Below, in pieces: positions 23,284 through 50,482 of a stretch of DNA of 64,000 nt. This stretch comes from Tetmemena sp. SeJ-2015 (taxonomy: Eukaryota > Ciliophora > Spirotrichea > Sporadotrichida > Oxytrichidae): contig JAJKFJ010022255.1 of NCBI GenBank assembly GCA_027382625.1, positions 62,001-126,000 on the forward strand, written 5' to 3'. The position numbers were made by a program, and so were the translations under genes. The notes under the pieces were generated by a model. It was not told where the DNA came from. It saw only the letters and a list, made by a program, of their open reading frames with translations, and ran no database searches. The first letter of the stretch is position 1; the number at the start of each line of letters is the position of its first letter.

Positions 23284-23539
23284 CCAGTGGTTTGTATATC
23301 TAAATGAGGCCTCTGGGGCTGCTTAATTAAAACCTTAATTCTTCTTATAAAATTAATACAAGTTATTGCCATATTTAACGAAATTGGAGATTTATAATCT
23401 TATAAAATTATTTTTAAAGTGGGGCCTATATATATATTTTAAAAGAAAAGTAAATTTTTTAATCTAAATTGACTAATTGATTCTTATTTTATTTCTTGAT
23501 TTGAGAATAATAAATTAGAATTTAAACTGAGCAGGAATA
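23284..23539. other. AT-rich spacer PPAN / YIPF
   Basis: About 250 bp of AT-rich DNA with no coding signal. It contains a short (TA)n run near 23430. Confidence 0.5.
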
Positions 23540-24792
23540 ATGGCTTATTAACCCCCAGTGTCATTCACTACCTTCAACTAATCTTCAAAGCCTCAAAAGC
23601 TAGAAGAAGATCTACTAGGTCTTGGTTATACTTCCAGCAGCACTAGCAATAACAGTTTCTCGTTCAATCCTCAGCCTAAGAAGAGTGACTCCTTGAACTT
23701 GAGAAAGAAGCCAAGCACAACAGCGGCAATTTATTCAACCCTGATGATATCTTGAGCACCATGGGTGGACAAACCCGCTCCTCTTCACATATTGAAATTG
23801 AGGAAGATAATGAATATAACATTAAAGAGAGCACTTCTTACTAAGTGGTTCTTCCAATGATATCAAGCCAATCAACTCTAAAGCTACCATCAATATGTCT
23901 GCTTACCCCGCATAAGGCACGCAGTTAAATACACTCCAAGCTAAACAGGCGATGCAGGAAAAGATGAAGAAGCAGAATGCTAGCATGAGTAATGAAAGAC
24001 CCAGAAACTTATTCCAGCGTTTTATCTTTGACCCTTACAAATATCAAGTCTACTTTGATGTTTCGGAGGAAGATATTAAGAACCGTCTTATCGATGCTCT
24101 TTGGCCCTTCATTCCTGAAAATCAACATCACCTTATTGAGAATGATGCTGAGCAGGTCAGGGAGTTCTAGAAGAAGCCAAACTAAAGCAAAGAACTTTAT
24201 GGCCCTATTTGGATTATGGTAAAACTTATATAAATTGATGTTTATGATAAATTACGAGTTATGGGTTAACTCTGATAATCGAGCTCTGTATTTTGGGGCA
24301 TCTCTAAACCGTTCTGTCGTCAAGTGGAGTTTAGTATTCTTAGAATCTATCCTCTGAGGAAATATTGACAAGACAAGCAAACTACAGCATAAACAAGGTG
24401 TTCAAGACAACTTTCCTGATACTATTCCTCTTTCTTGCCAACCCTTTTATTAGCTACCTGATATTCAAAAATCGTGGAGCTATCGAGGTATCTTACGCTG
24501 GTCTTTTCCAGATCTACTCTTACTCATTTGCAGTATTTATTCCTCTGGCCTTTCTAAACTTTAATTGATATACTTTATTTATTGTAACTGTATCTTTGCT
24601 TCTTTGAACAGATTAAGATTCTTCTTATTGGTGGTGAGTGCGGGAATAAGCCTGTACTACCTCTTCAAAGAGACTAAGGAATACCTCACCAAATATATAA
24701 CAGACCAGTAAACGTGGAAGTATTTCGTAGGCTATATAGTTGGCAGCACTGTTTTCTTTATGCTGCTCTTCAGGTACTATTTCCTCCACTGA
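23540..24792 (+). CDS. Yip1-domain membrane protein (YIPF1/2-like)
   Basis: Golgi/ER trafficking protein. ATG 23540, TGA 24790-24792. The N-terminus is hydrophilic and Ser/Asn-rich. The conserved pre-membrane motif FQRFIFDPYKYQVYFDV is followed by KELYGPIWI, typical of YIPF1/2. Five hydrophobic segments follow (TLIIELCILGHL; TTFLILFLFLANPFISYLIF; QIYSYSFAVFIPLAFLNF; FFLLVVSAGISLYYLF; YFVGYIVGSTVFFMLLF). IESs with pointers ATTA (24213) and ACTTTA (24558) restore the core. Two further frame changes in the N-terminal third (about 23710-23860) are unresolved; one could be a very small IES bounded by AGC. Confidence 0.88.
24213..24254 (+). other. IES in YIPF gene, pointer ATTA (38 bp)
   Basis: Copies at 24213-24216 and 24251-24254. 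Joining gives YGPIWITSYGLTLIIELC, the expected Yip1 sequence. A GT-AG reading does not restore the frame. Confidence 0.8.
24558..24577 (+). other. Ultra-short IES in YIPF gene, pointer ACTTTA (14 bp)
   Basis: Copies at 24558-24563 and 24572-24577. Removing 14 bp skips a TGA and joins FLNFIYCNCIFASLNRLRFF. Confidence 0.75.
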
Positions 24793-24965
24793 CTCTTAAA
24801 TGAATTCCTTGCTCATCTCATTTATAAGGAATATTTCTATCAGATTCATTTTATATCGATAAATCCATAAGTGGATGGAGGGTAAAGATATAGTAGGTGG
24901 GGGTGCTTAAAAATTAATTAAATAAGGAAGGTATTATTATTCAATATATCTCAGCAGCAGATAAT

Positions 24966-25828
24966 ATGGTAACACTCATTACCAACCATTCATCCTCTTC
25001 TATAGTCAAAGGCTCAAAAGAAAGGTAAGCAAGCAGCAGAAGGTGCCGAAGGTGAAGAAGGCGCCAACGAGAAGGTTGTCTACTACGGTCCCCCCGTCGT
25101 CGGAGCTGGCAAGCAAACCGATAACGTTTTCGGAGTCTGCCACATTCTCGCCACTTTCAACAACACTTTCATCCATGTGACTGACTTGTCCGGCAGAGAA
25201 ACTTACGCTAGAATCACCGGAGGCATGAAGGTCAAGGCTGACAGAGAAGAGTCATCCCCATACGCCGGTAAGTTTCGCCCCGTCCCTCGCCGTATCGTCG
25301 CAGGCTAAGTCCAGTTTGGACAGCGCTGGCGGCCTTACAAGCTGAAGAATCTTCCACGCTCGCGTTGAGTCGCGAATCTTAGTAGCTCACTATTTATTAC
25401 TGAACTGGCTCCCCTCACATAGGTGGGGAGCCTCTGAGTAAAGCTAACTCATTACATTTCAATTATATGCTAATTCCTTATAGAAGTTTACTTTGAGTGG
25501 AAAATTTTGGCAGCATAACCCCCTTAGCGAAGCACTTTGGGTTGTGGTCTTTTGTCTTTGTTATTATGAATGGTGCTTAACAATGACTATAGCTATGCTC
25601 GCTGCCGTCGACGTTGTCAAGGCTCTTAAGCAAGTTGGTATTAACGCTGTCCACATCAAGATGAGAGCAAGAGGAGGAGTTGAGACCAAGACCCCCGGTC
25701 CCGGCGCCCAGTCCGCACTCAGAGCACTCGCCAGAAATGGACTCAAGATCGGCAGAATTGAGGATGTCACTCCCGTTCCCACCGATACTACCAGAAGAGA
25801 CGGTGGTCGCAGAGGTAGAAGATTATGA
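24966..25828 (+). CDS. RPS14: 40S ribosomal protein uS11 (RPS14)
   Basis: Small-subunit protein lining the decoding platform. Exons are 24966-24968 (ATG alone), 25006-25267 and 25593-25828, with GT-AG introns of 37 and 325 nt. The product matches the family end to end: [73 protein letters not shown] and [20 protein letters not shown] ending RRL before TGA. Codon use is more GC-rich than in the neighbours, as expected for high expression. The start is fixed by the family N-terminus following a single-codon exon. Confidence 0.97.
25268..25592 (+). ncRNA. Long structured intron of RPS14, candidate host of a small RNA
   Basis: At 325 nt this intron is several times longer than the others here, and its first 180 nt are GC-richer than any other noncoding DNA nearby. 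It contains a perfect 8-bp stem, GGCTCCCC (25407-25414) with GGGGAGCC (25425-25432), and possible pairing of CCAGTT near 25311 with AACTGG near 25403. Ribosomal protein introns often host snoRNAs. I see no convincing C/D or H/ACA boxes, so the RNA identity is inference. Confidence 0.4.
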
Positions 25829-26009
25829 GCACAGGGTTCAATCTGGTGCACAAAGCATCTCGCAAACACTCAATCTCTTTCTTTCCCAATAATATTAAAT
25901 ACAACTAGATTCATATTTATTATTTTCTACATCTCTACGCCTACCCTCAGTCCGATCGCTTCCTCACAGTCTCATTTAACTTATTCAAATTAGTTGATAC
26001 TTTAAATTC

Positions 26010-26021
26010 CAAGTGGTGACT
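26010..26021 (+). repeat. 12-bp scrambled-junction pointer CAAGTGGTGACT, copy at the start of the 3' block
   Basis: Identical to 37599-37610 in the same orientation. The flanking bases differ on both sides, so the match is exactly 12 bp. The reading frame (Gln-Val-Val-Thr) is shared. Confidence 0.85.
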
Positions 26022-27075
26022 GATTTTGACAAGGAGCTGAACAATTTCTCAGATCACTCTGTAAACTCTGAGGATGGACAGGATGAGTCAGACCCAACCG
26101 ACTTCAACATTTATTTCGACAAGTTCACTCTGCTGGAGCACCTATCGCACCTAGAAGAAGATAACCTGTTCAAGATTCATTTAGTACAAGAGGATGAGCA
26201 AGCTCTAGATAGAATGAAAAAGCTAACCGAAGAGAAGGTCAAGGAGAAGGAGAAGGAGATTAGAAATGTGTAAATGAACATAGACATGCTCATTCAGTCA
26301 AAAGTCAATCTACTCAACAAGCAAGTCTTCTTGGATTAAAACATGAGAGTCAAGACCACTAGTGCATAGAACAGCTAACAAAATTAAGTACAAGGCCTAC
26401 CCAATGCTGTCAGCAACGTGGTCAGTAAACTTAATATCTAGAGCCAGACTACTATGAAGGCAGGCTCAAACGCCACTCTGGGAATGGTTTCTGCAAATCC
26501 ATTACCAATTTAATCTTAAGAGGAATTTGTACCTTCATACTACTATAAGAACTCTCTCTATATGCTGTAGTAGTTAACAGGATGCTCTAAAGATCAAATC
26601 AATAAGCTTGGCTAAATAATCTCAATTCTCCTAGACAAAATTGGAATCTCTTAATAATATCTCTTATTCGTTTTTAATCAAGTAAGAGGACCAAAGTGAT
26701 AAGTTAGAGATGTTAAGAAAGATAGAGCAGCGACTGTTGTTCCTATGTGAAGCAAGGGACTATATTTCTTCTGGTCCCCGTCGCAAGGATTTAGACAAGA
26801 AGGAGCAAGACCTTCATTCCCAGAGGAAAGCTGAGAGAATGGAGAAGAAGAAGGCGAGAGAGCAGCAGGAGCAGGAAGAAAGACAGAAGAAGAATATGGA
26901 CAGAATCAGGAAGCAAGATGAGTTTAAGGTCTTCCAAGGCAAACGCCAAATGGAGAGAGCTAAGAAGCCTGATCTTAAACCTAAAGAGAGAAATGACGAC
27001 AGACCAAGCCAAGATATTTTGGACTAACTTAGATATATTGGATCTAAAGTTCATTATTTGATAGAGAATTATTGA
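26010..27075 (+). CDS. CFAP100-like gene, 3' MDS block (scrambled)
   Basis: Open from 26010 with no start codon, ending at TGA 27073-27075. It encodes the C-terminal part of a CFAP100/CCDC37-type axonemal protein: LLEHLSHLEEDNLFKIHLVQ, then coiled coils, then MLRKIEQRLLFLCEARDYIS and a Lys/Glu/Arg-rich tail. It begins with CAAGTGGTGACT (26010-26021). The identical 12-mer, in the same frame, ends the 5' block at 37599-37610. So this block is the downstream half of the gene whose start is at 35574. A 13-bp IES lies at 26646. The protein is expected at the base of inner-arm dyneins (modifier of inner arms complex). Confidence 0.8.
26646..26666 (+). other. Ultra-short IES, pointer ATCTCTTA (13 bp)
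   Basis: Copies at 26646-26653 and 26659-26666. Removal joins KIGISYSFLIKQEDQSDKLE in the CFAP100-like 3' block. Confidence 0.85.
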
Positions 27076-27285
27076 AGTAATTTATTCATGACTCTGAAGC
27101 TATAGCACAAGTTTAAGTTACGAGCACGAATGAGCTAAATAAGAGTTCAATTTTGAATAAGTGAACATGAATAAGAAGTTTTAATCAAGTAAATTTGACT
27201 TTAAACTATAAATAAAATAAGAGGTAAATAGTTGTTGTTTTAATTTGAGATTTAAAAGATATTTCAAGATATTTTTGAACTTGTG

Positions 27286-28611
27286 ATGGTGAAAAGACTG
27301 CAACAGATCATCGATTCTGAGGATGATGACAACAACTTTGATAAAAAGAATAGAAGCGAAGCAGGAGTGGCACTAGATGATATCGACCAAGCAGGAACAG
27401 ATTCTCTAGACTTTGAGAGTAGAAGCGACTCTGACTCCGACTGTGAAGATTTGCCAAAAGCCTCAAAGAAGCTAAGAAGACCTCCTTTGAAAAAGAAAAG
27501 GCACCAACCTCAAGTTTTGTCTGCATCAGAAAAGTTTGAAGAGAGAGTTGATGGCCTAGAACTTAATTGTTCAAACTAAACTCAGTCATCTACTGATAAC
27601 TTAGGTTCTTCTTAGATTGATGAAACAAAGATTTTGTAAAAATTGAATGATGGATGCTTGAACACTGCTTCTGAAGCCTTTTCGTCTTACAAAGCTGCTT
27701 CAAATAAGTTTGAAAGTGAGTTTAAGCACTCTCGTGCTTAAAAGTTTGACTACTCGGATGACAAGAGACTAGACTGTATGCCCAGTGAGATCCGAGTAGC
27801 CTATCAGCTGAGCAGTCCTTCTTATGTTCATCTCCTCCACACTGCAAAGGATCTTACTAGATATAGGAAAATCAAGTATGCTGCGATGGGAAGTGCCCTC
27901 GAGACTTTGAACATCTACAAAGAAAGGTTCATCAGGTTTGATCTTGGTGATATCGAAGATTAAAAGTTTGAAATCTCTGAAGGCAAGGAGATCTATAGCT
28001 TTATGCTTGTTGCCAAGTATCGAGAGTGGGTCTATGAAAGAAAGTGCAGAGAGCTCAGAGGACTATCTTTTCAAGAGAAAGAAAGTTCTTTTAGAGGTTG
28101 TGAGAACAAGGAAAATTTGAGAATGATAATGAACTCATGTAAAATTCGATAATATATTTAACAAATGATGGTGTAAGCTGAGAAGTTTGAGAGTTCAGAT
28201 AACACTCAAACTGCATCTAGAGAACTAAATTCAGTTTCGCAACCCTTAAATGTGTGGAACCACTCAGGGGTAAGTTTCTTTGATAATTAATTTTTAATTC
28301 AGCCCCAAAAGTCACATGCATCTCAAACCTCAACATTGTTTAAATATAATTATTCTCAGGTTTAGCTAGGGATTCGATCTCAGTGTAAGATGCAAACACT
28401 TCCAAGCCTTACAAACTCTCTCAGGAGAAGCTTCTTTCAACTTAGCTTCATATCAATCCCGCCTTTTTGCAAGGCATGAAGCTCTTAAAAGATTCATAAG
28501 CAGACTCTAGTGGTAACAAAGGCATCCTCTTAAAGATATTTTTATAGACTTGCAGACTCATTCACTCTGTTCTCCTCCTTCAGATAGTCAAAAGACTCTT
28601 TCAAACTTTGA
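27286..28611 (+). CDS. Unidentified nuclear-type protein
   Basis: ATG 27286 opens VKRLQQIIDSEDDDNNFDKK and a Ser/Asp/Lys-rich N-terminus, followed by a more ordered block: PSEIRVAYQLSSPSYVHLLH, then DLTRYRKIKYAAMG and YREWVYERKCRELRGL. A GT-AG intron begins near 28270, and a 36-bp IES with pointer CTCA (28329-28368) restores ASQTSGLARDSISVQDANTS. The end at TGA 28609-28611 assumes removal of a GCAGACTC-bounded insert. I do not recognise the family. The last 160 bp overlap, in antisense, a second gene-like frame. Confidence 0.6.
28329..28368 (+). other. IES, pointer CTCA (36 bp)
   Basis: Copies at 28329-28332 and 28365-28368. Joining gives ASQTSGLARDSISVQD in frame. Confidence 0.7.
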
Positions 28612-29365
28612 GAATAGCTGCTTGCTCTTTGGATTTTCCAAATGTTAGTGCTTGTGCTTGGATGACGATGGTCTCCTTTTTTAGCACGACATCTTTGAGA
28701 ATACTTTTGCTCCGCACTCAATCTCTACTAGAAAATGGCATTGCCAAAGTTTGATTTGATTCTTCTTTTGCTTTTGAGACTACGCTCTTCAAGAATGGAT
28801 GCAGCTTTTCTTTTGGATGAAAATTTGCTTTGAAACTGGATAATTTGTTTTGGATCTATATTTGACGATATCTTTGACCTTATCTGAATTTCCTTCCTAG
28901 TTATCAAAGAAATTCTTAGCAACTAATTAAAACAAATTCATACATTCAAAGATGCTTCTTTCTATTTCACAAGTCTGCATTAAATTTTTTCCTTTTAACA
29001 TCCTATTATAGGATTGGTAGAGTAGCATCAGTAGTCGATTGATCATGCACCTATATCTAGTCTGACTTTCTCTTTCTTCCCCTTTTCGATGGAAGCTTAG
29101 TCTAAGCATCAGAATGACCTTTTTGTTACTCCTTGTAATTTTCCTATTTTGCTTCTTCGGACCTATCCTCCACTCTCTGTTCTACAATTTATTCTATCTT
29201 TGGTTAACTTTGTTGCCGATTTTGGGTCTGCGGGTCAAAGCTCTTTCTGTTTGTGAAAACTGAGGTTTATAAGTTTCCAATCCAGTGCCTATTTTTCTAA
29301 GAAGCTTTTCCTTCAGGCTGTTTCTGCGGTTGCTAGAATACTTAGTTTCCCAATTTAAAACATTA
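28448..29365 (-). CDS. Unidentified basic, Gln-rich protein (5' end unresolved)
   Basis: Minus-strand reading from about 29365 to TGA 28448-28450. The blocks are SEEAKQENYKEQQKGHSDAQ, the nuclear-localisation-like PSKRGRKRKSDQ, SSKRKAASILEERSLKSKRR and SLKESFDYLKEENRV. A short insert near 28925-28980 with a possible TTG pointer joins KKFNADLLRISLITRKE. No ATG is evident. The 5' end coincides with the left copy of the 62-bp direct repeat, so the first MDS may lie beyond the GC-rich island or elsewhere. No family recognised. Confidence 0.5.
29304..29365. repeat. 62-bp direct repeat, left copy
   Basis: Identical over 62 bp to 31472-31533, same orientation. It begins GCTTTTCCTTCAGGCTG and ends with AAAACATTA. 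Similarity weakens just outside on both sides. Confidence 0.9.
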
Positions 29366-31471
29366 CAATGAATAAAAAGGCTTCTAAATATTTCGGAGCG
29401 CTGTGGGTGGTATAGTAGTAAGTAGTAGTAAGATAGTAAGTATAGTAGTTACTAGTAGTAGTAGTAGTAGTAGTAGTAGTATAGGTACCCTGCACCCATG
29501 TAGCGAAATTTAATCAAAACCCCAGCCACCGACCCCTTCCGGATTAAATTAATTATTAACCGCCACCCTTCTTAATTATTTAACGATCACTTTCAATTAT
29601 AAGATGCTGCCAACCGCCAAGCCACCTTAGCTGCTCCGACCACACTCTTACTGCCTGCCCCCGTTGAAGCAGTCCACCGTCCTTCAGCTCCGCCATGATT
29701 TTTCGAACCAGAAGGTCTGCTAATCTAAATAGTCTACTCAGGCAAGTGGGACTCTTGATTCCATAAGCATTATTGGCAGAGATGATAAAATCCAAGAAGC
29801 TGACCTTAAAACAGATAGCCAAGCCTTGCGCTGGGACCCAGTGGCACAGCTGTAGGTCAACCGCTATCACTCCACCCTCGCCTTAGACGACTCAAACCCA
29901 TTCAAAACAAGCACGATATCATCATTCTTTGGCCCAAACCCCCATGAGCAAAGGCAGCGGTTTTAATAAAATCCCCGACTTCCAATACTCTTGGCTAGGA
30001 AAGAAGCCCTGCCCCCCCCTAAAAACCAGGGTCCCTAAAAGTTTAGATCAAAGATTGAAAAGCCAGAAAGCACTACAACCCCGTTGGGGCTGAGCTTTTG
30101 GGTTTAATGAAGAGGCTGTCAGTTTTAAGACCCCCTAAGAGAACATTTCGGCCACATCGTTGCAATGCTAAAACTGAGGGCCCTCCGGAGGCGACCTGGC
30201 CCCTTTAAACGATAGAAATCAGGAAAAGCCCCAAAACTTTTCCACCCTTAAACCCGATTCTACCCACCCGCTACCTGACCCCAAATTTAACAACTTGCGC
30301 TTCAGATCACGAGAGTACCAAGGGCGCTTACCCTTTTCGATATGAGAGAGGCTGTTTTAGTTTCTTGAAACGTTAAAAGATGCAAATTCCCAAAGGGCCA
30401 ACCCCCAAATAGGAGAATGCGAAGGGCTGGTGAAGCAGGGGGCTTAGAGCCATAGCAACCCATGAAGTTTGATAATCCGCACTTTGGGCCCTTAAAGAAA
30501 CAGCCTGGAAAAGGGGAAAGAAGTTCAAGCATGAGTTAAGCTTTGGGGATCCCAAAGGCAATCTTTCGGCTTTTTTAAAATCACAATTTCCCCCAACCAA
30601 ACCTTCGAGATCCCAGATTTCCAAAAGGACGCTGAAAGGGGGATGAATCAAACGACAATTAGTCAATTCCCCCTGTCATTAAGGACCCCCATGCTAAGCG
30701 ACCCAGAGCTCGGGGGAGTAAAAATTAAAGCTTTCACGATTCGTTTTTGATCCACAGGAGGGGGAAGTGAAAAAGGGCAGAATCTGAAGAAATCGTTAAA
30801 GTTGATGGCAATAAAAAAACCCCGTTCAGCCCCTTTCCCCCTTTACTCAGACTAAAAAACTTCGAAAAAGATTGGATGCGATCAAACAAGATGACCCGCA
30901 ACAAGCTGAACTTTCTTGCTACGAATGATACAAAATAACAATGCTGCGGCTTGAAGAGGGCAGGCCCTGACTCAGAGCTCGTCGTTTTAAGGGGCCTTTT
31001 TCTGGCATGGAAACTTTCAAAATATTCTCAAACCCGCGGAAGGTCACAATTTAGAATCGGGAAAGGGAAATACTAAACAGAAGCCCTCGAACCCGGAACA
31101 CACATCGAGAATAGCAGGTTCGGGCCCTTTGTGGGCTTTGGGAGGGGGGCCGATAAGATCCTGGGTGGATAAAAGACCTGCCCAAATCCCAAACAGTAAA
31201 GCAGTCCCAAAGGGGAAAAACCCTTTGCGGATTGAGTGCGTGGCCTTCAGTCTAAGTAAAATGTCGCCACAGATTTCTAAAGTAAGGCGAAGGGAGACGA
31301 AGTATTTGTACAAGCAGGTATTCAGAAGGTAGCACCGAATATTAAATCCGGACAGAGCTGGCAACCAGACAAATCCTGGAACTTTTGCTTCAGGGTCGGT
31401 CGTGTTTTTGGAAATAAGGATTGATTATATTTGCAACAACCTAAATTAATGACAATCGCCTCCTATAAGAC
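29366..31471. other. GC-rich island (about 2.1 kb) between 62-bp direct repeats
   Basis: Base composition changes abruptly from about one-third to nearly one-half G+C. The DNA is rich in short G and C runs and in TGA on both strands. No frame gives a recognisable protein; the longest are about 100 codons on the minus strand (31044-31364, 30373-30666) with no family resemblance. It starts with a GTA/TAG microsatellite. It could be a germline-limited insert, a decayed mobile element or foreign DNA, or a chimeric assembly. Excision between the repeats would remove it cleanly. Confidence 0.75.
29411..29483. repeat. GTA/TAG trinucleotide microsatellite
   Basis: An irregular run of GTA/TAG units ending in about ten perfect repeats, at the left edge of the GC-rich island. 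Confidence 0.9.
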
Positions 31472-31533
31472 GCTTTTCCTTCAGGCTGTTTCTGCGGTTG
31501 CTAGAATACTTAGTTTCCCAATTTAAAACATTA
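31472..31533. repeat. 62-bp direct repeat, right copy
   Basis: Exact copy of 29304-29365. Confidence 0.9.
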
Positions 31534-32239
31534 TAATAAAGAAAAAGGTTTATAAATTGAGCTCGACTATTGAAGGTTTTAAAAAATTTAAGACAAAATA
31601 ATTAGATTCTATATTCTGAAAAAGGAGTTGACTTCTCATTTGGGGCGTTCTATTTGTTGTGAGTGAATGTATTCCTAGCAGCATCGAGGTTTATAATAAA
31701 TTAAAACAATTTTCATCTTCAAAGATAAAGAAGTATCATTCTTTACATTTGGGGAAATTGACTTTTATTGTAATTCTTATCTTAAAAAAAGTAAGTATTT
31801 TATTAAATTCATCTAACTTACAATGGAATTAATTTGCTTAGTTTAACTTTCCTATTTCATAATATAACAAGTTTATTTTCTTTAACTTTTTCTTTTATCT
31901 TAAAAAAATAGGAAGATTGATATATATTCTTTAGAGATTTTTTTAACTTTAAAAATTTATTTTCTCTTTTTTAAGTTCAATTTTATTAAACCAACAACAA
32001 ATTTTATGATAAGAAGAATTATAAATAAATATTCTCCATTTTAACTTTATTTAAATCAATATTGATTTGGTTAAATGAATCTTGCCTAGTCGGGTTTCCT
32101 GGTCTCTTATCTTATATTTCTTTAACCTATCACAAAATCCTACTTTATACTTTGCTAAGTTCGAGGGCCATCAATTCATGTTAATTTTAAATATAATTGC
32201 AACAATTATTATAATTCAGGCTTTATGATATTTTAGATT
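31534..32239. other. AT-rich noncoding stretch
   Basis: Very AT-rich with many homopolymer A/T runs. No coding signal on either strand and no recognised element. Confidence 0.5.
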
Positions 32240-34623
32240 TCATAATTTAAATTAATATGAAATATTTCTACTCATGTGTTATTTTTAAAATTTCCATTGT
32301 GGAAATTTAAGAAAATTTATCAAGACTTTATAAGGAGATTAAAACGAAATAAAGTTTGATAATAAGAAGCTACTTTTAAAAATAAAAAATGAATGGATCT
32401 GTTTTTAAGAATCTGCTAAAAAGAAGAAAAATTATAATTTTTAAAATGCTTAATAAATATTTAGGATTAGATCAAGTACAGTAAACTCACTGTCTTCTTT
32501 GGTGAACAGATTATCAGAACTAAACTGTTTCCTTGCAATTTCCTACAATTTTTATTGGCTTCTTTAGTGATAGCCCTCATGGCCATTCTTATCCTATATA
32601 GCTTTTTAATTTGTTTATTCTTTTTTCATCTATTTCTTTTGCTCATCATTAAAAGTTTTCAGTTAAGTTTCTTCATGCAGTTTGGGCTAGACTATTTATT
32701 CACCCACTTTCTTTTCTTCTTCATGAATTTATTTAATTTTTGTTTCCTCTGAAGCTAATGGAGATCTGGTTGTTTATCTCTTATCTGTATCTTAACTCTA
32801 TTTCTACTTTGTAATTCTTTGCTTTTAATTCAAAAGCTTTTGGCACTTAAATATATTAAATTAAACAATTATGCTAAATGACTTTTGCTTTTCCTTGTTT
32901 TTCTTATCTAGAATTTATAAATCGACCATAAATAAATACATCATATAAAGAAAGTGAATCTGTTCTGAGATAAGAGAGAGGTAGAGCAGTTGGTTCTTGG
33001 CCTTCAGTTTGTGCATCTCGCTTTCAATGTGAGTGAAGTAGTCGTGAAACTTTTCAGAGCAGATGCCGCAAAAGTTATGAGTATGGTGAGGAGCAGGCTC
33101 CAGAGGCTTTGAATTTAGTTTAGTGCTGAAAGACCACGCATCTTCAAAGCTCTCCTGATTATTCTTCATTCCTTTACCTTTTTTAGGATATTATGAATTT
33201 TTGGTAGAATTGGTATTTTTTATTGACTTCTTCCCCTGCTTTTGCTCTTCTTAAGAATTTGTAGAAAATTGGCTTTAGTATTCATCATCTGAGAAAAACA
33301 GCATTTCCTCCTCACATTTTAACTACTGCTCTCTATACTCAATTATCTGTACAATTTTACATTCAAAGATTTATAATTATCTTCAAATTTATAGATCAAG
33401 TTAAAAGTTTTATATCTCTCTTCGGGAATTCTTTCTTTTAAAAAAAATTGAGTTAAATTGAATTAATTGAGGATAAAATAAAGATTAAGATCATCATTAA
33501 CGAAATAAATTTTATATTTCTCATAATCAAATTAAAGATATAATCTGATTTATAAGTAAATTATCTTTTGCTTATTTGTTTCATAGTAAACTCTTTCTTC
33601 TTTTGTGGAGATAGCAGACATAGCTTCTGGAGCACTTTTTATGAATTAGTGGTAATCAAACACTTTCTTATTTGGACTCTAGTTTTACGATTACATCATT
33701 TAGTTTTAAGGTGCTGATTGATTTTGAGATTTCTAGGGCGAACTTTTTAACTCTTTAAACTTGTGGAAGAAAAAATAAAAGAAGGACTGCTGCTCAAAAT
33801 ATTGACTTTCACGATTGGATAAATCCTAACTGCCTCCAGGAATCTTTGAAACCACAAAATAGCCTTATTCCTCAAATTTCTATAGAGGCACTTTTCTTTT
33901 CTAGTTCTAAGCTATTGCTAATTGAATCTCATTATGGAAGGCAGGGTAGTCAGAGTAAATTTTAGAGCAAGTTGTCAGCAAATCCTTGATTCTAATCACT
34001 CTTCCAGTTAATAAATCAGTGTCAGTAAAGCTTAGCTCTATATTTCTTAGATTTAAATAAATGGAATTCTTACTTAGGGTATCAAAAGTTTCTCTGAAGG
34101 CTTTCAGATTTTTGCTATCCTTTAAATTATCAAAGCTATTAATCTTTTTCGTTTCTTCCACTTCAATTTTCTTATAGACTCTAAAAGCCTGCTTTGTAAT
34201 TGCTTAATGAGAAGGCAGAGTCTCCTTAGAATTCTTAATGAAATTCAATTTCTTTGTAAAAGTTTTAAAATCGTAGTCTAAGAAGTAGGGATCATCAAAG
34301 CAAACTTGATAATGGCAAGTAGAAGGATCAAAAGTGAGTCTAAGTTGCCCCTTGAGTTTCCTAATTAGCGATTAGAGTTCTGATCTGGCTGCTTTCTCTT
34401 ATTGAGTGAGATTATCCAAGTTCTCTATGAAAAAACTCAGTCCTTCAAGCGAGACCATGCTCGACAATTCATGGGCGTGTTGCTTTGAGATCCTCTTCAG
34501 AATATTTTAAAGCCTCAACTCATTCTATACTGGTAGCTAGACCTTCAATGGAGTTTTCTCTGGTTTGAGTTTAGCTTAGTATTGTGACAGTCGAGGAGAT
34601 TGAGACTATTTTGAAAATCTCAT
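32240..34623 (-). CDS. Dbf4-type zinc-finger protein (probable DDK regulatory subunit)
   Basis: ATG 34621-34623 gives MRFSKQSQSPRLSQYQAKLK and a Lys/Gln-rich N-terminus, a globular middle (FDDPYFLDYDFKTFTKKLNF), an acidic patch EEEMLFFSDDEY and then HTHNFCGICSEKFHDYFTHI ESEMHK. That last block is a C-x2-C-x10-H-x5-H arrangement typical of the Dbf4 zinc finger that helps bind Cdc7 kinase. An AT-rich insert of roughly 200 bp (about 33370-33580) interrupts the frame before the finger. The frame then continues as a Lys/Glu/Gln-rich tail; TGA 32240-32242 is the first stop, but the true end may be nearer 32440. The Dbf4 call rests on the finger and overall composition only. Confidence 0.55.
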
Positions 34624-34783
34624 GAATAATTATAATAAATTAGTAAATTCAATAATCTTAGAAAGTATATTTCAACTGAAAGTGTTTAGTTTGTTCATGA
34701 TAGAAATGATTTGGGAAATAGATTTCAAAATAATTAAGGAGCGCATTATTCCACAATGAATAGAGCAGGAGAGTAGGGAGTTT

Positions 34784-35588
34784 TCAGACAAGTACTCCTC
34801 CAGCCTTCACCTCGCTTCTGACATCTTCTTGCTTTTCCTTTGCCTGTCTCATCAGGGAATCGTATCTATAAGTATTGGTTTGCATTATAAATATTCCTTA
34901 CTTCTGTTCCAGTCTCGCGATCTCTCCCTTCTTTTGGCTTAGTGCCTCAGTGATCTGCTTAATGACTCAATAATTATAAAACTACGAATAATTTTTCAGT
35001 TTTAAGAGTGCTCTATATCCTTATTTAATTTGAGGATTTTAAAATGACATTCTCCATGTTTGAGATTTCAGCGATGACCTCTGGTACGACCTCTAACTTG
35101 TTCTTCTCAAAGAGGACTCCATTAACCATTCTCCAGCACTTTCTGTCGTCTTCCAATTCCTTGATTGTCTCCAAAACAAGTCTATACACAAGATATTTAT
35201 CCATTCATACCATCAACAAATTATTTGAAATTTTGAACTCTAGATATTGTTTCTCTTTGAAAATGAGATTATCTTAAATTATCTTGATAGAATATTGCTT
35301 ACTCATGTTCCTTTTTCTCGTCTTCGATTTCGATAATCTTTGCGACCAAGAGAGAGGTCTCCTTTTGCAATAGTTGATAGTTCTGAATGACTTGTGCTTC
35401 GAGGGTTCTGCGGCGGTATTTCTGCTCTCCATATTCAATAAACAACTGTTTTATAATTCAATTATACAATTATCTCTCTCACTTCCGCTTTGTATTCTCC
35501 TCCTTAAAAAGAATTAGCAAGTTTTTATTTGTTTAAATCCCTATAAACAAAAGTAATGAAACAGTAATTATTCATGCAGCCAAGAAGT
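34784..35588 (-). CDS. PFDN2: Prefoldin subunit 2
   Basis: Beta-type subunit of the hexameric prefoldin chaperone that hands actin and tubulin to CCT. Recognised by EAQVIQNYQLLQKETSLLVA, the hairpin core ELEDDRKCWRMVNGVLFEKN and KLEVVPEVIAEISNME, and the C-terminal coiled helix ITEALSQKKGEIARLEQKYD. TGA is at 34784-34786. GT-AG introns lie at 34866-34901 and within about 35180-35310 (joining EKKEHE to LVLETIKEL). A possible IES with pointer GAATA spans 35432-35497. The N-terminus is uncertain: the only upstream ATG in frame is at 35573-35575 and shares its CATG palindrome with the start of the divergent CFAP100-like gene. One frame change near 34960-35010 is unresolved. Confidence 0.85.
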
Positions 35589-37610
35589 TCGCATCATCAA
35601 AATGCAAATTAAGTCTATCACAATAATCAATATGGCGGTGGGGAGGAGCACCTAGAAGAGCAACATACTAAGAGTTTTTCCATGTCTGCTTCAAACAGAA
35701 ATCAAAACAGACTCTATCAAAAATCTGTTATTACATTTGTTAATCAAAAGTTTTTAGTTATGCCAAGTTTACTAGTGAATCTAGAAGTTAGGTGAGGGAG
35801 ACAAGTCTCGGATAAACCGCATCAGGTGGTTACCATAATTTAATTGGCACTCAGCAGTGGAACTAAGCATAATAGCAAATTAAAAAAGCTGAGCTAGCTT
35901 CTAATCTCACTCACGGGGGCAGATTCGGCAGCAATAAAAATGAGTACATGCCCAAATCTAATAAGAGTCTTAATAACACTTTCCAAGGATAGTAACTGGC
36001 CTAAAACTTCATGTCCCCTATCAATCATACAAATTAACTTAAAGATGTCTATAATCTCAAAATATTTGTGAATGAGGTAAACCATGCAGTGAGAGAAAGC
36101 TATAATGGGAATCAAGCAGGCCTCTTCAACATGAATAGAGAAGAGACCAAACTTGGAGGTGGGGCAAGTCCCTCCCCCGCAGCTGCGTTGAATAACTTCT
36201 TCCGTTAAAACCAGCGTTCAGTTCAAAGGCCCACCTATTTAAACTAGAAACACAAAACTTTGTTCTCAACAGGCGGCAGTATGGGGAGGCAAGCCAATCA
36301 AAATGCCTACTCTTTAATGAACTACTCAACTGGAGGGTAAATGAATGGACTCTTGCCCACTTTAGGACTAAATAAATACAAAAATAGCGAGCAAGCACTT
36401 CCTATTGGAGAAAATAGAGACAACCCATTCAGTGTTCAAAAAGAGACTGAGAAATTGCTAGTTGCGAGGGAGAGAGAAAGAGAACAAAGGGAATCTTCTA
36501 AGGATGATAAGTTTGCGCTCAGAGTGTTTTAAAAGAGTATTCAGACTAGATAGAACAGAGCAGGGGTCATTAGAGATAAAAATGGAATTAGACCTGCAAA
36601 GACTAGTGGCGGATAAGGGATGAGCACTGAATAAGGAAGACTTGGAAGTTTGAATAGAAACAGAGATAACAAAGAATTGTTGAATGCAAGTCATGATGAG
36701 CTGCCCTCAAGGTCTTAAAAATTCAACTTATTCGACGAATCGTAAAGGGCGGAGGATTTAAAGCATGATCTCTTATAATTCTAATGTCTTTAATGATACT
36801 GTAGCGAAGTACATGGACACATAAGCAGGGAAGAGCAAGTAACTTCAATTAACAAATGGAGGGAATGAGCTCATGCAATCTTCAAAGCACTCCTTGAATT
36901 AATCCTTCACTTCAGATATGGATTTGCTACGGTCTCGCCCCACTCGAGGTGTTCTAGACTATCTAAATAAATCAAGGGAGAGCAAAGAATCCACTCGTGA
37001 CTTCATAATAAATGCCAGGAACATTTTGGTGGCTCAGATTGCTATAAACGATAAGACTGAGGAGACAGAGAGGCTTAAGGAATACATAATCATGGAGAAA
37101 GAGAAGCTAGAAGAGGCTCGCAAAACTTTTGAGGAAGATAAGGACAAGTTCTAAAAATACATGGATGACTTGAATAGAAAGGCAGAAGAAACGGCTTCAG
37201 AGGTGCAAAGACTGACTATAGAAAAGAATGAGAAGTCTGAGCGAATCAGTCAGCTCATGTCTCGGATTCAACTCAAGAAAAGTAAAACCAAGTAGATAGA
37301 AGAGAAACTTAACCTGTACAAACTGCAGAAGCGATTCTTAGACACACTTGCTGTATCTGCAGGCAAGAAGCAGTCCTACAAAAAGAAGTCTTTAGTATTA
37401 TAGTTTTCAGGAAATTTTATTTATGAGAAGCTTAAGCTTAAAGTAGGGGAGAATGCAAATAGAGGAGCCTCATAAGAGAAGCATTCTCCAAGCAAATAGA
37501 ACAACAGAAACTCTACTAAGAAGAATTTTGAGGGATTTTTCCTTACCCAACTGCAAAATGCGGGCGCAAATTTTCCACCTAAGAAAACTCAAGAGCCTCA
37601 AGTGGTGACT
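35574..37610 (+). CDS. CFAP100-like gene, 5' MDS block (scrambled)
   Basis: ATG 35574 opens a long Asn/Gln/Ser-rich N-terminal region (about 400 residues). A DUF4200-type coiled coil follows: RPTRGVLDYLNKSRESKEST, RDFIINARNILVAQIAINDK, then KTFEEDKDKFQKYMDDLNRK and KLNLYKLQKRFLDTLA. This is the core of CFAP100/CCDC37-type axonemal proteins. Read straight on, the frame would stop at TGA 37638-37640. Instead the block ends in pointer CAAGTGGTGACT (37599-37610), which rejoins the 3' block at 26010. IESs at 35748 (AAGTTT) and 36713 (TCTTA) restore the frame. Order in the germline is 3' half first, 5' half second, same strand. Confidence 0.82.
35748..35770 (+). other. IES, pointer AAGTTT (17 bp)
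   Basis: Copies at 35748-35753 and 35765-35770. Joining gives TFVNQKFTSESRSQVRETSL. Confidence 0.8.
36713..36775 (+). other. IES, pointer TCTTA (58 bp)
   Basis: Copies at 36713-36717 and 36771-36775. Joining gives DELPSRSYNSNVFNDTVAKY. The insert looks coding-like, so it is not obvious by composition. Confidence 0.75.
37599..37610 (+). repeat. 12-bp scrambled-junction pointer CAAGTGGTGACT, copy at the end of the 5' block
   Basis: Matches 26010-26021 exactly. Joining yields TQEPQVVTDFDKELNNFSDH. Confidence 0.85.
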
Positions 37611-37699
37611 CTCACTCAAATTATCGACCACTTTCTTTGAAATGAAATAAAAGAATAGAGTTTAAATTATAATTCGATAAACAGGAAACCATCTATAAA

Positions 37700-38785
37700 A
37701 TGAAAAAGGGGCAAGCACCGCCACCACAGCCTGAGCCCACTCAGGCACAAGAAGAAATTAAGGAAGTACCATAGTCAGGCATTGGCAGGTTTGAATACAT
37801 CAACGGCACTATGTACTAGGGCAACTGGAAATTGCTGAATGGCGCTAAAGTGAAGCATGGCTTTGGAAAGATCACTTTCTCAGGCACAACTGCCAGTGAG
37901 TTTGGAAACGAGGAGTATGAAGGCGATTGGGAAGAAGACTTGATGCACGGTTACGGTACTTACAAGTATACCTCAGGTGCTGTGTACACTGGTTCATGGC
38001 TAAAGGGCAAGCAGCATGGGACTGGAAATATGCAATATGCAGACGGGTCGAGATACGAGGGTCAGTGGGAGAACAATCTGATGCATGGCGATGGAATATA
38101 CACTGACTCAGACCAAGTAAGATGGGAGGGCATCTTCGTGCAAGGAACTTTCGAGTCAAAGATTCAGAAGAAGCTGCAGGGAGATAAACTGCTGAAGGAA
38201 AAGCGCAAGCTCTACGAAGAAAAGGCCAAGGAGTTCTTTGTGAGGTTCTTCGAGGCATTCGCAAAGTCAGATAAGAAGACATTCAAAGACAACTTGGCTC
38301 CCTTCTTTGCAACTCTCGAGCATGTGCAAGAGTATGTCAGTGATCCTTATCCCAAGTTTGAAGAGAAACATCATTCAAGTTTAATTTCAATCTTATTCTA
38401 ATGAAATGATTGATATATTTTTGAAAAATAAATTAAAATAAATAATTAAAAATAATTATATTCTTATTTTAAAAGTTAAACTTAATAGAAAGCCATCTAT
38501 CAATCTTGATATAATTGCATTAATTTGAAACAGCCAGACAAGTGGAATGAGTGGATGAAGGTTATTTACTCAGATGGTAAGTGCAAAATCAAAGCCTTGG
38601 GCAGCAAAGAAGAAGCCACCCTCATCCCTTAGACTAATGTTCACTGTGAGTAGCTAAGAGAGAAACCAGGTGGCTAATTGGTGGAGGTCACTACTCAGGT
38701 TGGCGACAAGAATTTTGTGAGTGTGCTCTGTGAGCTCCCTAACGAAAATTGGGTCATGGTTTATTATGCAGAGAAGGCACTTTGA
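37700..38785 (+). CDS. MORN-repeat protein
   Basis: ATG 37700, TGA 38783-38785. A Pro/Gln-rich N-terminus is followed by about five MORN repeats (YEGDWEEDLMHGYGTYKY, YTGSWLKGKQHGTGNMQY, YEGQWENNLMHGDGIYTD). An Asp/Lys-rich helical region comes next, then after a 162-bp IES a C-terminal beta-rich domain beginning QPDKWNEWMKVIYSDGKCKI. MORN repeats bind membranes or form elongated scaffolds, often in ciliates at the cortex or cilia. No closer orthologue assigned. Confidence 0.88.
38365..38532 (+). other. IES in MORN gene, pointer GAAACA (162 bp)
   Basis: Copies at 38365-38370 and 38527-38532. Joining gives YPKFEEKQPDKWNEWMKV. The insert is AT-rich and carries a TGA just after the left copy (38401-38403). 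Confidence 0.85.
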
Positions 38786-38851
38786 TTTATACTATAACTT
38801 AATTTAAAACTTATCTACTTATAATTATCAAGATTATAATATAAATTTGCA

Positions 38852-39942
38852 ATGGCCAACAGAACTGATCCTCGGGCGCTGCAAGTCCACGGCACAAACC
38901 CTCAATTTCTGATAGACAAGATTATCCGTCTCAAAATCTATAATGATGCCTACTTCAAGGAAAAGTGTTTTGCACTTACAGCTGAAACTCTAGTCGACAG
39001 GGCGATTGAGCTGAAGTATATAGCGGGAACATACAGTGGACTTGGGCGTCCCTCAAAGTTCTTGTGCCTGATTCTGAAGATGCTTTAGATCCAGCCTGAC
39101 AACGACATAGTGCTTGAGTTCATAAAGAATGAAGACTATAAGTACATTAGAGCACTTGGAGCGTTCTACTGGCGTCTTACTTCTCCCTAGGCGAGTGAGG
39201 TGTATGCCTAACTAGAACCTCTTTATAAGGACTATAGAAGGTTAGCTTTCAGGAAGGAGGATGGGAGGTTTGAGATTATGCACATGGATGAATTCATCGA
39301 CCACCTTTTGAGAGACGAGATGTTTTGTGAAGTGCAGCTTCCCAGAATAAACAAGAGACATGTGTTTGAAGAGGATGGAATCCTAGAGCCAAGGATAAGC
39401 GCTTTATAGCTGCAAGATCAAGATTTGGAATCGGAGGAGAGTGAAGCTCATGAAGAGATGGAAGATGAGAATGCTCACTCTAAGATAGTAGTAGAAAATT
39501 AGTAAAACGAGAAGAAAAGGAGAGAAGTGGTGCGAGGTGATAATGAAGATAGGGATAGGAAAGTAGATAAACATAGAAAAAGAAGAGCATCTTCATCCTC
39601 AGATAGTGAAAGAAGGAGAAACAATAAACATAAGAAGCATAGACATAGGTCCTCATCAAGCTCCTAGTCTGAGTCAGACAGGTCTAGAGAAAGACATAGC
39701 AGGCACAAAAAGCACAAAAGAGAAAGGAGCTCATCTAATCATAGGAATGTTATCTACTAAATTAATCTAGCGAGAGTGATTATGAAAGAAGGAGGAGGGA
39801 GAGAAAGAGAGATGATAAGTATGAGTCAAAGAGAAGAGATGAAGCCAAATAACCTAAAAATGGCAAACAAGAAAGTAAAGAAATAGATCCCAATAGTGAC
39901 GAGTACTGGCTCAATCTCAGGAAAAACTTAGGAATCAAATGA
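38852..39942 (+). CDS. PRPF38A: Pre-mRNA splicing factor PRP38A
   Basis: Component of the spliceosomal B complex, acting in the nucleus. ATG 38852; the N-terminal domain is strongly conserved: VHGTNPQFLIDKIIRLKIYN, LKMLQIQPDNDIVLEFIKNE, DYKYIRALGAFYWRLTS, YAQLEPLYKDYRRL and MHMDEFIDHLL. It is followed by an acidic stretch and an Arg/Ser/His-rich tail (KHRKRRASSSSDSERRR). A 32-bp IES with pointer ATCTA (39733-39769) lies in the RS tail. Removal gives ERSSSSESDYERRRRERKRD and leads to the end ...YWLNLRKNLGIK before TGA 39940-39942. No introns seen. Confidence 0.95.
39733..39769 (+). other. IES in PRP38, pointer ATCTA (32 bp)
   Basis: ATCTA occurs three times here (39733, 39752, 39765). Only the pair 39733-39737 / 39765-39769 restores the Arg/Ser frame, so pointer choice matters. 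Confidence 0.82.
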
Positions 39943-40108
39943 ATATTTTACTTCTCAAGAATTTAATTAATTTTAAAGATTTATTTTGAAGAAGTATACT
40001 GTAAAAGAAAGTATTTATCTTTGAGAGAGTGTAGATTTCGTTTAATCTTGAGATTAGACATTCCACGATTTAAATAAATTATCTATAATTTTAAAATTTA
40101 AACTAAGA

Positions 40109-41604
40109 ATGGAAGAAGGAGGCCAAGGAGTAAGAAAATCTATAAATTTAATCCAAAATTCTAATCCTTAATCTAATCTTGTTTGCTAATAGGCAGCTGG
40201 AGGCGCAGACCCAGTGATTATGATGGACGATATAGTTGAGATGCTGAAGCTTTTAGACTATGAGAACAAGTTCTGCAGATAGAAGTAAGTAGCGGTTCTC
40301 ATTTCTTAGTAATAAATGACCATGATACTCTGCTTATTTGCTGATGTTGTTTATTGAAATTCTTGTGTGTAGGGGTTTCAAGCCAATCTCAAGAACCTTC
40401 TTTGCCATCGCTAGTAGCAACCCCAGTGAGCAGTTCATCTACTTCGTGCAGCTAGTTTCTTATCTGCTCTCTATCAATAACCACCAAGTGACTGGCTGGA
40501 ATAAATACGATGACCCTATGACTGCTTCTCAGAACGTTAGTAAGTAAATTTCTGAAACGATTTATCGTTGTTGCTTATAATCTTGAGGGGAATTTCTAAC
40601 TAACTTTCCACTTTTAGTTCTTGAACTGAAGAAACTGGGAATAGAGGTTGACATGCCTCCCAACAAACTGAAAACAGGCTTCGGAGACGGTGTGTGCGCT
40701 GTACTTCTGAAACTATGTTCTGTCTCTCTTTAGAACAAGTTCAAGTTTAAGAAGTTCACAATTAAGGAGGAAGCAGGAGGTTTGGAAGACGATGGAGATG
40801 ATGCTGGAGATGACATGGATGGTGGACAAGATATAGCTGACATGGCAAACAACCAGCAGGATGACGATGATATTGAGGACTTTGCTGACTTCGGACATGG
40901 GCAGGATGGAACAGGAGAGGATATATTGCTATTATATGCTCTACTTTAATGTTAGAGAGGAGAACCAGCAGAACCAGATTATTCAGTCTTCAATCAGCAG
41001 AGAGGAGTGGATGATGGAAGTAGAGCGCGTCGCTCACAAACTCAAGATTTCCAACGCTGGTGGTGACGGTGGCAAGGAGTGGCGTTCTCACCTCGACCAG
41101 ACCAAGAAGTACGCAGACCAAGTTAAGCAATCTCTCCCTGATGTAAGAGTCAAGCTAGAGAAACTCTCAGAAGAGGTAAGCAAGGCACTAGAGAAGATCG
41201 GCAAAAAGGAGGGCATCCTTTCTAAGAGCTTCTAAGGAATGACTGGCGATTATCGCGCTCACACTGAGAATCTGAAGGAGATCTAGAATTCCTTCGCCAC
41301 TCTCAGCAAGAATGTTGCTGACATGGAAAACGACCTGAGTGAGATAAACGAACGCCTCTCACAGGTGGAGAAGAAGATTGACGACACAGGCAAATCATTC
41401 AGTGATAACACTCCTCTCCAGAAAATCAAGAAAGCAATCGCCTCTGTCAAGAACGACATCAAGTCCATCGATATAAGAATAGGAGTTGTTTCAAACACAC
41501 TCCTGCAGCTCAAACTAAAGGAAAGAACCAAGGCATAGGAAGACTCCAAGGGTATTTCAAAAATGGTGCTAGAAAACAACGACGAGTATGACTTAGAAAT
41601 TTGA
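40109..41604 (+). CDS. IFT57: Intraflagellar transport protein IFT57
   Basis: IFT-B peripheral subunit needed for cilium assembly. ATG 40109, TGA 41602-41604. The N-terminal CH-like domain carries DIVEMLKLLDYENKFCRQKG, FKPISRTFFAIASSNPSEQF and TGFGDGVCAVLLKLC. An acidic linker and a long C-terminal coiled coil (WMMEVERVAHKLKISNAGGD, GKEWRSHLDQTKKYADQVKQ) follow. Three GT-AG introns are clear: 40130-40192, about 40285-40370 and about 40541-40618. A 40-bp IES with pointer GAGAGGA interrupts the linker. Removal joins DGTGEENQQNQIIQ. Length (about 410 residues) is normal for the family. Confidence 0.94.
40915..40961 (+). other. IES in IFT57, pointer GAGAGGA (40 bp)
   Basis: Copies at 40915-40921 and 40955-40961. 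Restores the coiled-coil frame. Confidence 0.88.
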
Positions 41605-47831: not shown

Positions 47832-48244
47832 TGAAAGTACTTAGGATGAACCATCTCTCTAATGAAAGCATATAATTTTCTATTCGATATGAATCTAATC
47901 TTTATTTCTTGAAAGTAATTAACTTCTTCAAACAGTGCGTAAGAGATTATTGTGATGAGGAGGAGGAGCGTAAAGATATGAGAGTAATATATTTTCTTAA
48001 TAATTTTATAGATTGCTGAGGTGCGCATTTAAACTTATTAGGTAAGATAATTGAGATGTTAATACGACAGGGTATTTAATAAGAGTCATTGCTATGATTA
48101 ACTAGAATAGGCTTCGGCCCGGGATGACTTGGATCCGCGCTCAAAAATATTATATTTCGTTATCCCCTTAAGCAAAGCCTTTCGAGCTCTGTCAAGTGCC
48201 ATACTTCTGAGCAAAACTCAGGAGGCCGGCACTTCTAATCACAT
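47832..48244. other. Spacer before the amylase 3' end
   Basis: AT-rich DNA with one GC-rich patch (about 48110-48160, 48200-48235) just beyond the amylase stop. I checked the patch for a tRNA and found no cloverleaf. No supported gene. Confidence 0.4.
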
Positions 48245-49737: not shown

Positions 49738-50482
49738 AAACTATGAACACTTACTATGACCATAGATTTTTATGCTTGTTTTGTGTGGTTTAATTGGTTT
49801 GAGATGAAGTGTTTTTATAAATTTGATAATTAATATTATAAGTTAAGCGAGGATTCGCTAAGATTAGGCCCAAAGGATTCACGCCCAGATAATTATTATT
49901 TATAAATCAAGAATTTTAAAGTTATCCTATAGAATATAATAATAGAATACTGCCTCTGCGATGAGCTCATAATTTATTCTCACTACAAATTTTATTAAGA
50001 TAAAATATCTTGTTTATTAGCATATTTGATCAAACTAATCGGATAAATAAAAGAGGATAAGTGAAGCATAAAATAAGTTAATAATTACCCTTTCCTCTAA
50101 GATAGATTGAACTATCCTCCAAATATAATGATGAATACTATCTTTTCCTCTTCTGTAATAACTAATCCAAATTTAATCTTTCTAATGACCAAGGGCTTTA
50201 GTGCTTCCTGTATTCACTTTTTTGTCATAATTTCATAGTATTGATCATATCAACATAATTAAAACTTATAATAGCCTATTTCTTATTCTAATGAATTTCT
50301 ATGTTAATCAAATTAAATTAAAGACAAATTTTTGCAGATAAACTAAATTTAAGTTCTATATTTTATTTTAATTAGTTTTTCATTTTTTATCAATATTAGT
50401 TGATGTTGGGTATAAAATTGTTCCTCAGTTTAGAATGGTTCAAGCTTGTGCCTTTTTATCGCTTCTGGCCAGAAACATAAAC
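49738..50482. other. AT-rich intergenic region
   Basis: About 745 bp with no coding signal on either strand. It holds the amylase promoter side. Confidence 0.5.

What the first reader, a model, noticed from the sequence alone, without database searches (positions are those of the whole stretch)
26010..37610. Scrambled CFAP100-like gene: 3' half lies 8.5 kb upstream of its 5' half, joined by a 12-bp pointer
The 5' block (35574-37610, with the DUF4200-like coiled coil) and the start-less 3' block (26010-27075) share exactly CAAGTGGTGACT at the end of one and the start of the other, in the same frame and strand. Together they give a full-length CFAP100-type protein; apart, one lacks a C-terminus and the other a start. 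This is a permuted, non-inverted MDS order.
Basis: partly seen in the sequence, partly recalled or inferred. Interest (0 to 1): 0.9.

Follow-up and report, generated by a model that had tools for sequence, protein, structure and literature searches.

The report
Scrambled cilia gene in ciliate germline
In this ciliate's germline DNA, a gene for a cilium protein is stored as two pieces in the wrong order with a 12-letter matching tag on each, as expected of the known "scrambled genes" that such ciliates reassemble in their working nucleus; it is a clear but ordinary example.

Summary
Confirmed. CAAGTGGTGACT ends a DUF4200/CFAP100-type 5' block (35574-37610) and starts a start-less 3' block (26010-27075) on the same strand, 8.5 kb upstream. 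Joining at one copy gives a protein of about 1,000 residues. The four proteins found by the joined sequence, two named Stylonychia lemnae, all span both halves in the order 5'-3' (52-60% identity over 96-99% of the segment searched). The linker across the join is 46 residues here, 44 and 42 in two of them. No joined copy was found in the assembly. Both blocks also hold short interruptions (31 bp with AATC, 28 bp with ATGAT) whose removal restores residues conserved in relatives, so this is germline-type DNA. Added here: the gene after the 3' block matches the C-terminal extension of one S. lemnae protein, so the 3' cluster probably carries a second gene; and a paralogue (C2882) starts within a few codons of the same place, while two colinear paralogues have an insert in that linker, hinting at an old rearrangement site. 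Macronuclear DNA or RNA of this species was not available. A simple two-block permuted scrambled gene: new member of a known kind.

The parts
35574..37610 (+). 5' block of the CFAP100-like gene: start codon, N-terminal region, DUF4200 coiled coil; ends in the 12-bp pointer; contains at least two short interruptions
   Evidence: translations; Pfam PF13863 42.1 bits vs cut-off 29.7; PDB CFAP100 8glv_AW E 4e-4
37599..37610 (+). pointer copy at the end of the 5' block, CAAGTGGTGACT
26010..26021 (+). pointer copy at the start of the 3' block, CAAGTGGTGACT
26010..27075 (+). 3' block of the CFAP100-like gene, no start codon, ends with TGA
   Evidence: alignment to four relatives
26645..26675 (+). 31-bp conventional IES with 4-bp pointer AATC; removal gives GIKQEDQSDK as in P0001, P0003 and the paralogue C2882. 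A 13-bp deletion at 26646 with an 8-bp repeat ATCTCTTA also restores the frame but adds SYSFL, which the relatives lack
36765..36792 (+). 28-bp conventional IES with 5-bp pointer ATGAT; removal gives LKHDTVAK, against LKHETLAR/LKHETLAK in P0003/P0004 (similar, not identical); other candidates exist
35690..35790 (+). stretch holding a further frame break (deletion of 2 modulo 3 needed); exact IES or intron unresolved; the 17-bp AAGTTT candidate at 35748 was used for the joined model
37384..37425 (+). possible in-frame 42-bp IES (pointer AGAAG) encoding residues that the relatives lack; one of several candidates
   Evidence: inference
27286..28760 (+). gene 2, probably on the same macronuclear chromosome; matches the C-terminal extension of S. 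lemnae P0002 (27796-27960, 42% over 55 aa, E 2.6e-10; 28526-28723 weakly, 25%, E 0.02); an intron near 28273-28306 is read by eye
   Evidence: its own protein search gave no homologue at E 1e-3
27076..35573 (.). interval between the two blocks: gene 2, a dispersed repeat, and minus-strand ORFs, one with a zf-DBF match just below the Pfam cut-off (23.9 vs 24.8 bits)

Best explanation
The window is micronuclear (germline) DNA of a spirotrich, most likely hypotrich, ciliate that reads TAA/TAG as glutamine. The gene encodes a CFAP100-type axonemal coiled-coil protein and is stored in two segment clusters in permuted order on one strand: [3' half + probably gene 2] and then, 8.5 kb on, [5' half]. 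During macronuclear development the end of the 5' cluster (37610) is joined to the start of the 3' cluster (26010) at the shared 12-bp pointer, of which one copy is kept; small conventional IESs are removed; telomeres are added at the outer ends. Shown: sequence, pointer, frame, homology, and order in relatives. Inferred: that this species makes the joined molecule, guidance by template RNA as known from Oxytricha, and the route. One simple route (inference): because the pointers are direct repeats with the 3' half first, recombination between them would release an 11,589-bp circle in which the 5' and 3' halves are already correctly joined, and removal of the interval from that circle would give the linear chromosome.
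For: 12-bp exact direct repeat at both block edges; in-register chance 1 of 2000 shuffle pairs. The joined protein, searched over residues 430-1004, listed 4 proteins and all 4 span the join: P0001 60% identity/96% covered, P0002 (S. lemnae) 56%/99%, P0003 (S. lemnae) 53%/96%, P0004 52%/96%. Linker FFLTQ to DFxIYF: window 46, P0001 44, P0002 42, P0003 32, P0004 29 residues, with FD(K/Q)EL in matching place in the window, P0001 and P0002. Only the unjoined copy was found in 146 Mb. Conventional IESs in both blocks and in the neighbouring MORN gene (162 bp, pointer GAAACA) mark germline DNA. Colinear paralogues on C2058 and C858 have the parts in the order 5'-3'. 12 bp fits the average of 11 bp for scrambled pointers in Oxytricha, against 5 bp for non-scrambled ones (PMC6765146, passage seen).
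Against: No macronuclear sequence or RNA of this species was available. No reads were seen, so a misjoin between the blocks is not strictly excluded; the 2.1-kb dispersed repeat in the interval is the likeliest place, but the same 92-bp sequence, 93% identical, lies on both its sides, and the window has no N. In any register a 12-bp shared word is only moderately rare here (5 of 1000), and the 12-mer occurs 8 times in the genome. The first frame break of the 5' block is unresolved. Only 7,993 candidate proteins were scored.
Confidence: 0.93

Rival explanations
1. Assembly artefact: the gene is colinear in the real germline, and contig C3057 was misjoined between the blocks.
For: A 2.1-kb dispersed repeat with 52 matches in the genome lies in the interval; no reads were seen.
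Against: Both pointer copies have unrelated non-coding sequence on their far side, as expected of two MDS-IES edges; the repeat is bounded by the same 92-bp sequence on both sides; no N in the window.
Confidence: 0.04
2. Two separate genes or a broken gene: the halves are independent somatic genes, or a pseudogene split by transposition.
For: Each block is long; the 3' block lies next to another gene.
Against: The 3' block has no start; the 4 proteins listed are all joined; short interruptions in the blocks restore conserved residues when removed, so the coding sequence looks maintained; the 12-bp repeat is in register.
Confidence: 0.02
3. RNA trans-splicing rather than DNA joining unites the halves.
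For: GT and AG dinucleotides do occur inside and beside the pointer; DNA alone cannot test it.
Against: The two splices with those GT and AG that I worked out by hand shift the frame into a stop; the edges carry a 12-bp direct repeat of which one copy gives the open frame, the mark of DNA pointers.
Confidence: 0.01

Closest known systems
Scrambled genes of hypotrich micronuclei (actin I and TEBP alpha, seen in PMC2394655 passages; DNA polymerase alpha recalled; 2,818 scrambled chromosomes in one Oxytricha count, PMC6765146 passage)
   Different: Nothing in kind. Only one scrambled junction was found: a simple two-block permutation without inversion or odd-even pattern
Nested / embedded loci (Russian doll genes, PMC5940158, passages seen)
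   Same: Other sequence, including ORFs, lies between the two clusters of one gene
   Different: That a complete foreign macronuclear locus is nested here was not shown; gene 2 in the interval probably belongs to the same chromosome
CFAP100 (CCDC37) axonemal protein family
   Same: DUF4200 coiled coil in the 5' block; sequence match to CFAP100/CCDC37 chains of PDB 8glv and 9fqr
   Different: The match covers the DUF4200 part only; the 3' block alone found no solved structure at E 1e-3

Membership tests
Scrambled (permuted) hypotrich germline gene | Coding segments out of macronuclear order in germline DNA | tested here: met
   3' block 8.5 kb upstream of the 5' block, same strand; order 5' then 3' in the 4 proteins listed
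Scrambled (permuted) hypotrich germline gene | Pointer repeat at end of MDS n and start of MDS n+1, one copy restoring the frame | tested here: met
   12-bp exact repeat; joined frame open to the stop once IES candidates are removed
Scrambled (permuted) hypotrich germline gene | Germline context with conventional IESs | tested here: met
   31-bp AATC and 28-bp ATGAT IESs (residues compared); 162-bp IES in the MORN neighbour
Scrambled (permuted) hypotrich germline gene | Joined molecule in the macronucleus of the same species | not testable with these tools
   no macronuclear sequence of this species was found; joined proteins of relatives only
Scrambled (permuted) hypotrich germline gene | Telomere addition at the outer ends | not testable with these tools
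   no macronuclear chromosome ends available
CFAP100 family | DUF4200 domain | tested here: met
   PF13863 E 1.3e-10, 42.1 bits vs cut-off 29.7
CFAP100 family | Sequence match to solved CFAP100 chains | tested here: met
   8glv_AW E 4e-4 and 9fqr_Hv E 4.5e-4, 5' block only; weak
CFAP100 family | C-terminal part also related to CFAP100 | tested here: inconclusive
   no PDB hit at E 1e-3 and no Pfam family at E 0.1; homology to relatives' proteins, three of which carry PF13863 in the precomputed column while P0004 does not

The most novel reading that the evidence does not exclude
The 5'/3' linker of this gene family is an ancestral rearrangement site. In two colinear distant paralogues (C2058, C858) it holds an insert like an ordinary IES; in the window gene, and in the paralogue on C2882, whose 3' half begins within about four codons of the same place (by eye) and whose 5' half was not found on its 29.9-kb contig, the site is a non-local junction. 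The family would thus show an ordinary IES turning into a scrambled junction, before the two paralogue classes (both present in S. lemnae) split.
Probability: 0.3. Interest if true: 0.5.

Novelty: new member of a known kind. Interest (0 to 1): 0.3.

Why it matters
Taken alone it adds one well-resolved scrambled gene to thousands. Its use is as a clean, minimal case: one scrambled junction, direct-repeat geometry, colinear paralogues in the same genome and a paralogue that starts at the same spot. That makes it a handy locus for asking how an ordinary IES becomes a scrambled junction, and whether a permuted two-block gene passes through an 11.6-kb circular intermediate.

Tried and rejected
Duplication-and-decay traces: the sequence after the 5' block was compared with the start of the 3' block, and that before the 3' block with the end of the 5' block; scores 10 and 9 were reached by 47 of 100 and 81 of 100 shuffles: no trace. 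Blocks against the interval and flanks: blastn gave short matches only (best E 0.037, 16 bp), tblastx none at E 0.01.

5' partner of the C2882 paralogue: not found on its contig with P0001-P0004 (one match of P0001 residues 39-471 at 20% identity, E 2e-4, overlapping the 3' part and beyond, was set aside as coiled-coil noise). Not found in the genome with a P0004 core piece (nearest the window's own 5' block, 80%, then C3144, 41%) or with the N-terminal part of P0003 (window block, C858, C2058 only). The idea that C2882 shares the window's 5' block: the longest in-register shared word is 5 bp, so no support.

S. lemnae is unlikely: its two proteins are 55 and 52% identical to the joined model. 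Rfam: no match in the window at gathering scores or in 24000-41000 at E 0.1; ARAGORN: no tRNA. Gene 2 alone: no homologue at E 1e-3. Pfam on ten ORFs of the interval: one weak match. Introns were set aside for the breaks at 26645 and 36765 because deletion between short repeats gives residues conserved in relatives; no RNA was seen.
Full report
Observation. The word CAAGTGGTGACT occurs exactly twice in the window, at 26010-26021 and 37599-37610 on the + strand; 0 of 100 shuffles held two. The identity is exactly 12 bases, not extendable either way. Under the ciliate code (TAA/TAG = Q) the block 35574-37610 starts with ATG and carries a DUF4200 domain; the block 26010-27075 has no start, meets TGA four codons upstream, and ends in TGA. 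Reading past 37610 gives LTQIIDHFL-stop. A+T is 74% just after the 5' block and 65% just before the 3' block, against 63% and 59% in the adjoining coding stretches, a mild contrast.

Is it more than chance? Of 1000 shuffle pairs of the two 100-bp neighbourhoods, 5 had a shared word of 12 or more in any register. Requiring an in-frame join with a linker between the FFLTQ and DFxIYF motifs of 29-55 residues (29 is the shortest relative; the window has 46), 1 of 2000 shuffle pairs reached 12. Genome-wide the 12-mer occurs 8 times in 146 Mb, so length alone does not make it unique.

The joined product. Joining at one pointer copy and removing candidate interruptions gives 1,004 residues, or 990 if a further 42-bp in-frame candidate is removed. 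A search with residues 430-1004 among 5.8 billion proteins (7,993 candidates scored) listed four proteins, all spanning the join: P0001 60% identity over 96%, P0002 56% over 99%, P0003 53% over 96%, P0004 52% over 96%. P0002 and P0003 are named Stylonychia lemnae by their sources; P0001 and P0004 carry only EukProt numbers, which I take to be Oxytricha trifallax (recalled, not tested). The junction reads KKTQEPQVVT-DFDKELNNFS in the joined window gene, KKQQEAPQLNNEFDQELETFS in P0001 and KRIESLPIVDEFDKELNSFS in P0002; linkers are 46, 44 and 42 residues. The tail LTQIIDHFL has no counterpart in these proteins.

Germline context. The 3' block's frame break is best resolved by removing 31 bp bounded by AATC at 26645, giving GIKQEDQSDK, the sequence in P0001, P0003 and the paralogue on C2882, and nearly so in P0002 and P0004; a 13-bp alternative with a longer repeat (8 bp) also restores the frame but adds residues the relatives lack. 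The 5' block's second break is resolved by 28 bp bounded by ATGAT at 36765, giving LKHDTVAK against LKHETLAR and LKHETLAK in P0003 and P0004. These short-pointer IESs, and a 162-bp IES with pointer GAAACA in the neighbouring MORN gene (first pointer copy at 38365, second at 38527), mark the DNA as micronuclear. The first break (near 35748) has many candidate solutions, and a 42-bp in-frame stretch at 37384 may be another IES. Pointers of 4-6 bp for these IESs and 12 bp for the scrambled junction fit the averages of 5 and 11 bp given for Oxytricha (PMC6765146, passages seen).

Copy number and assembly. A joined copy would carry the pointer followed by the first bases of the 3' block; that 21-mer, with up to 2 mismatches, matches only the germline site at 26010, and the eight 12-mer sites shown include no joined form. 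Each block has one full-length copy; the 3' block also matches C2882 in two pieces at 73 and 87%. Assembly error is unlikely but not excluded: the interval contains a 2.1-kb dispersed repeat (52 matches in the genome), yet the same 92-bp sequence at 93% lies on both its sides, and no N occurs. No reads were seen.

Second gene. The S. lemnae protein P0002 has a C-terminal extension that the other three relatives lack. It matches the ORF just downstream of the 3' block (27796-27960, 42% over 55 residues, E 2.6e-10 against the window; and weakly 28526-28723, 25%, E 0.02). So in S. lemnae the order is 5' half, 3' half, gene 2 (fused, or predicted as one). I infer that the window's 3' cluster (26.0 to about 28.7 kb) is 3' half plus gene 2 of one macronuclear chromosome. 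A direct protein search with gene 2 found nothing at E 1e-3.

Paralogues. Two contigs that are 96% identical to each other over about 3.5 kb (C2058, C858) carry distant paralogues with the 5' and 3' parts colinear. Between the parts of C2058 lies a frame-breaking insert, A+T-rich by eye; the longest flanking repeats (10 bp) do not restore the frame, while a 9-bp repeat at 280-bp spacing and a 6-bp repeat at 223-bp spacing do. The closer paralogue on C2882 (61% to P0003, 68% to P0004) begins at 23330 in the same linker, KQDDFDGEGEY...DFKIYF, within about four codons of the window's junction by eye. No 5' half was found on its 29,876-bp contig (one 20%-identity coiled-coil match set aside) or as a second close copy in the genome. 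This hints at an old rearrangement site, but the missing half may simply be absent from the assembly or cut into very small segments. Feng et al. [quoted passage not shown]

Mechanism. In Oxytricha template RNAs guide MDS joining (PMC9797194 and PMC2394655, passages). For this gene, recombination between the direct pointers would release an 11,589-bp circle (length) holding the correctly joined gene, from which the interval must be removed. That is inference; the circle survey in Oxytricha found few circles from scrambled IESs (4 of 10,151 sites) and 86 circles that may carry MDSs (PMC6765146, passages), so such a circle need not be the route.

Prior art. Scrambled genes are abundant: 29.2% of O. 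trifallax chromosomes (5,285 of 18,111) in one analysis (PMC10901763, section read) and 13.6% of Tetmemena loci (PMC9797194, abstract). A search for at least two of CFAP100, scrambled and micronuclear matched 76 papers; the 10 listed have no occurrence of CFAP100. The finding is therefore a new member of a known kind.

Noticed in passing
window ~29400-31470, flanked by 29298-29389 and 31466-31557: 2.1-kb dispersed repeat, G+C-richer than its surroundings, without a Pfam match in the ORFs tried; 52 matches in the genome, long copies at 76-87% identity. Flanked here by 92-bp direct repeats, 93% identical; no such flanking repeat was found at the six other copies checked, so it may be an unusually long target duplication or an earlier local duplication.
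   Followed up: partly
window 38365-38532: MORN-repeat gene (ATG 37700) interrupted by a 162-bp IES with pointer GAAACA; removal gives a continuous protein.
   Followed up: yes
window 25000-25829: uS11-like ribosomal protein gene (name recalled from the translation, not searched) with a GT-AG intron of about 310 bp at about 25271-25580, read by eye; it ends about 180 bp upstream of the 3' block.
   Followed up: no
window 47806-49878, minus strand: Alpha-amylase gene in two open pieces (Pfam PF00128 and PF09260) with a short gap between them, perhaps an IES or intron.
   Followed up: no
G000 C1787 and C3586: Matches with the same scores at the same contig coordinates (9384-9668) suggest duplicated or haplotype contigs in the assembly.
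   Followed up: no
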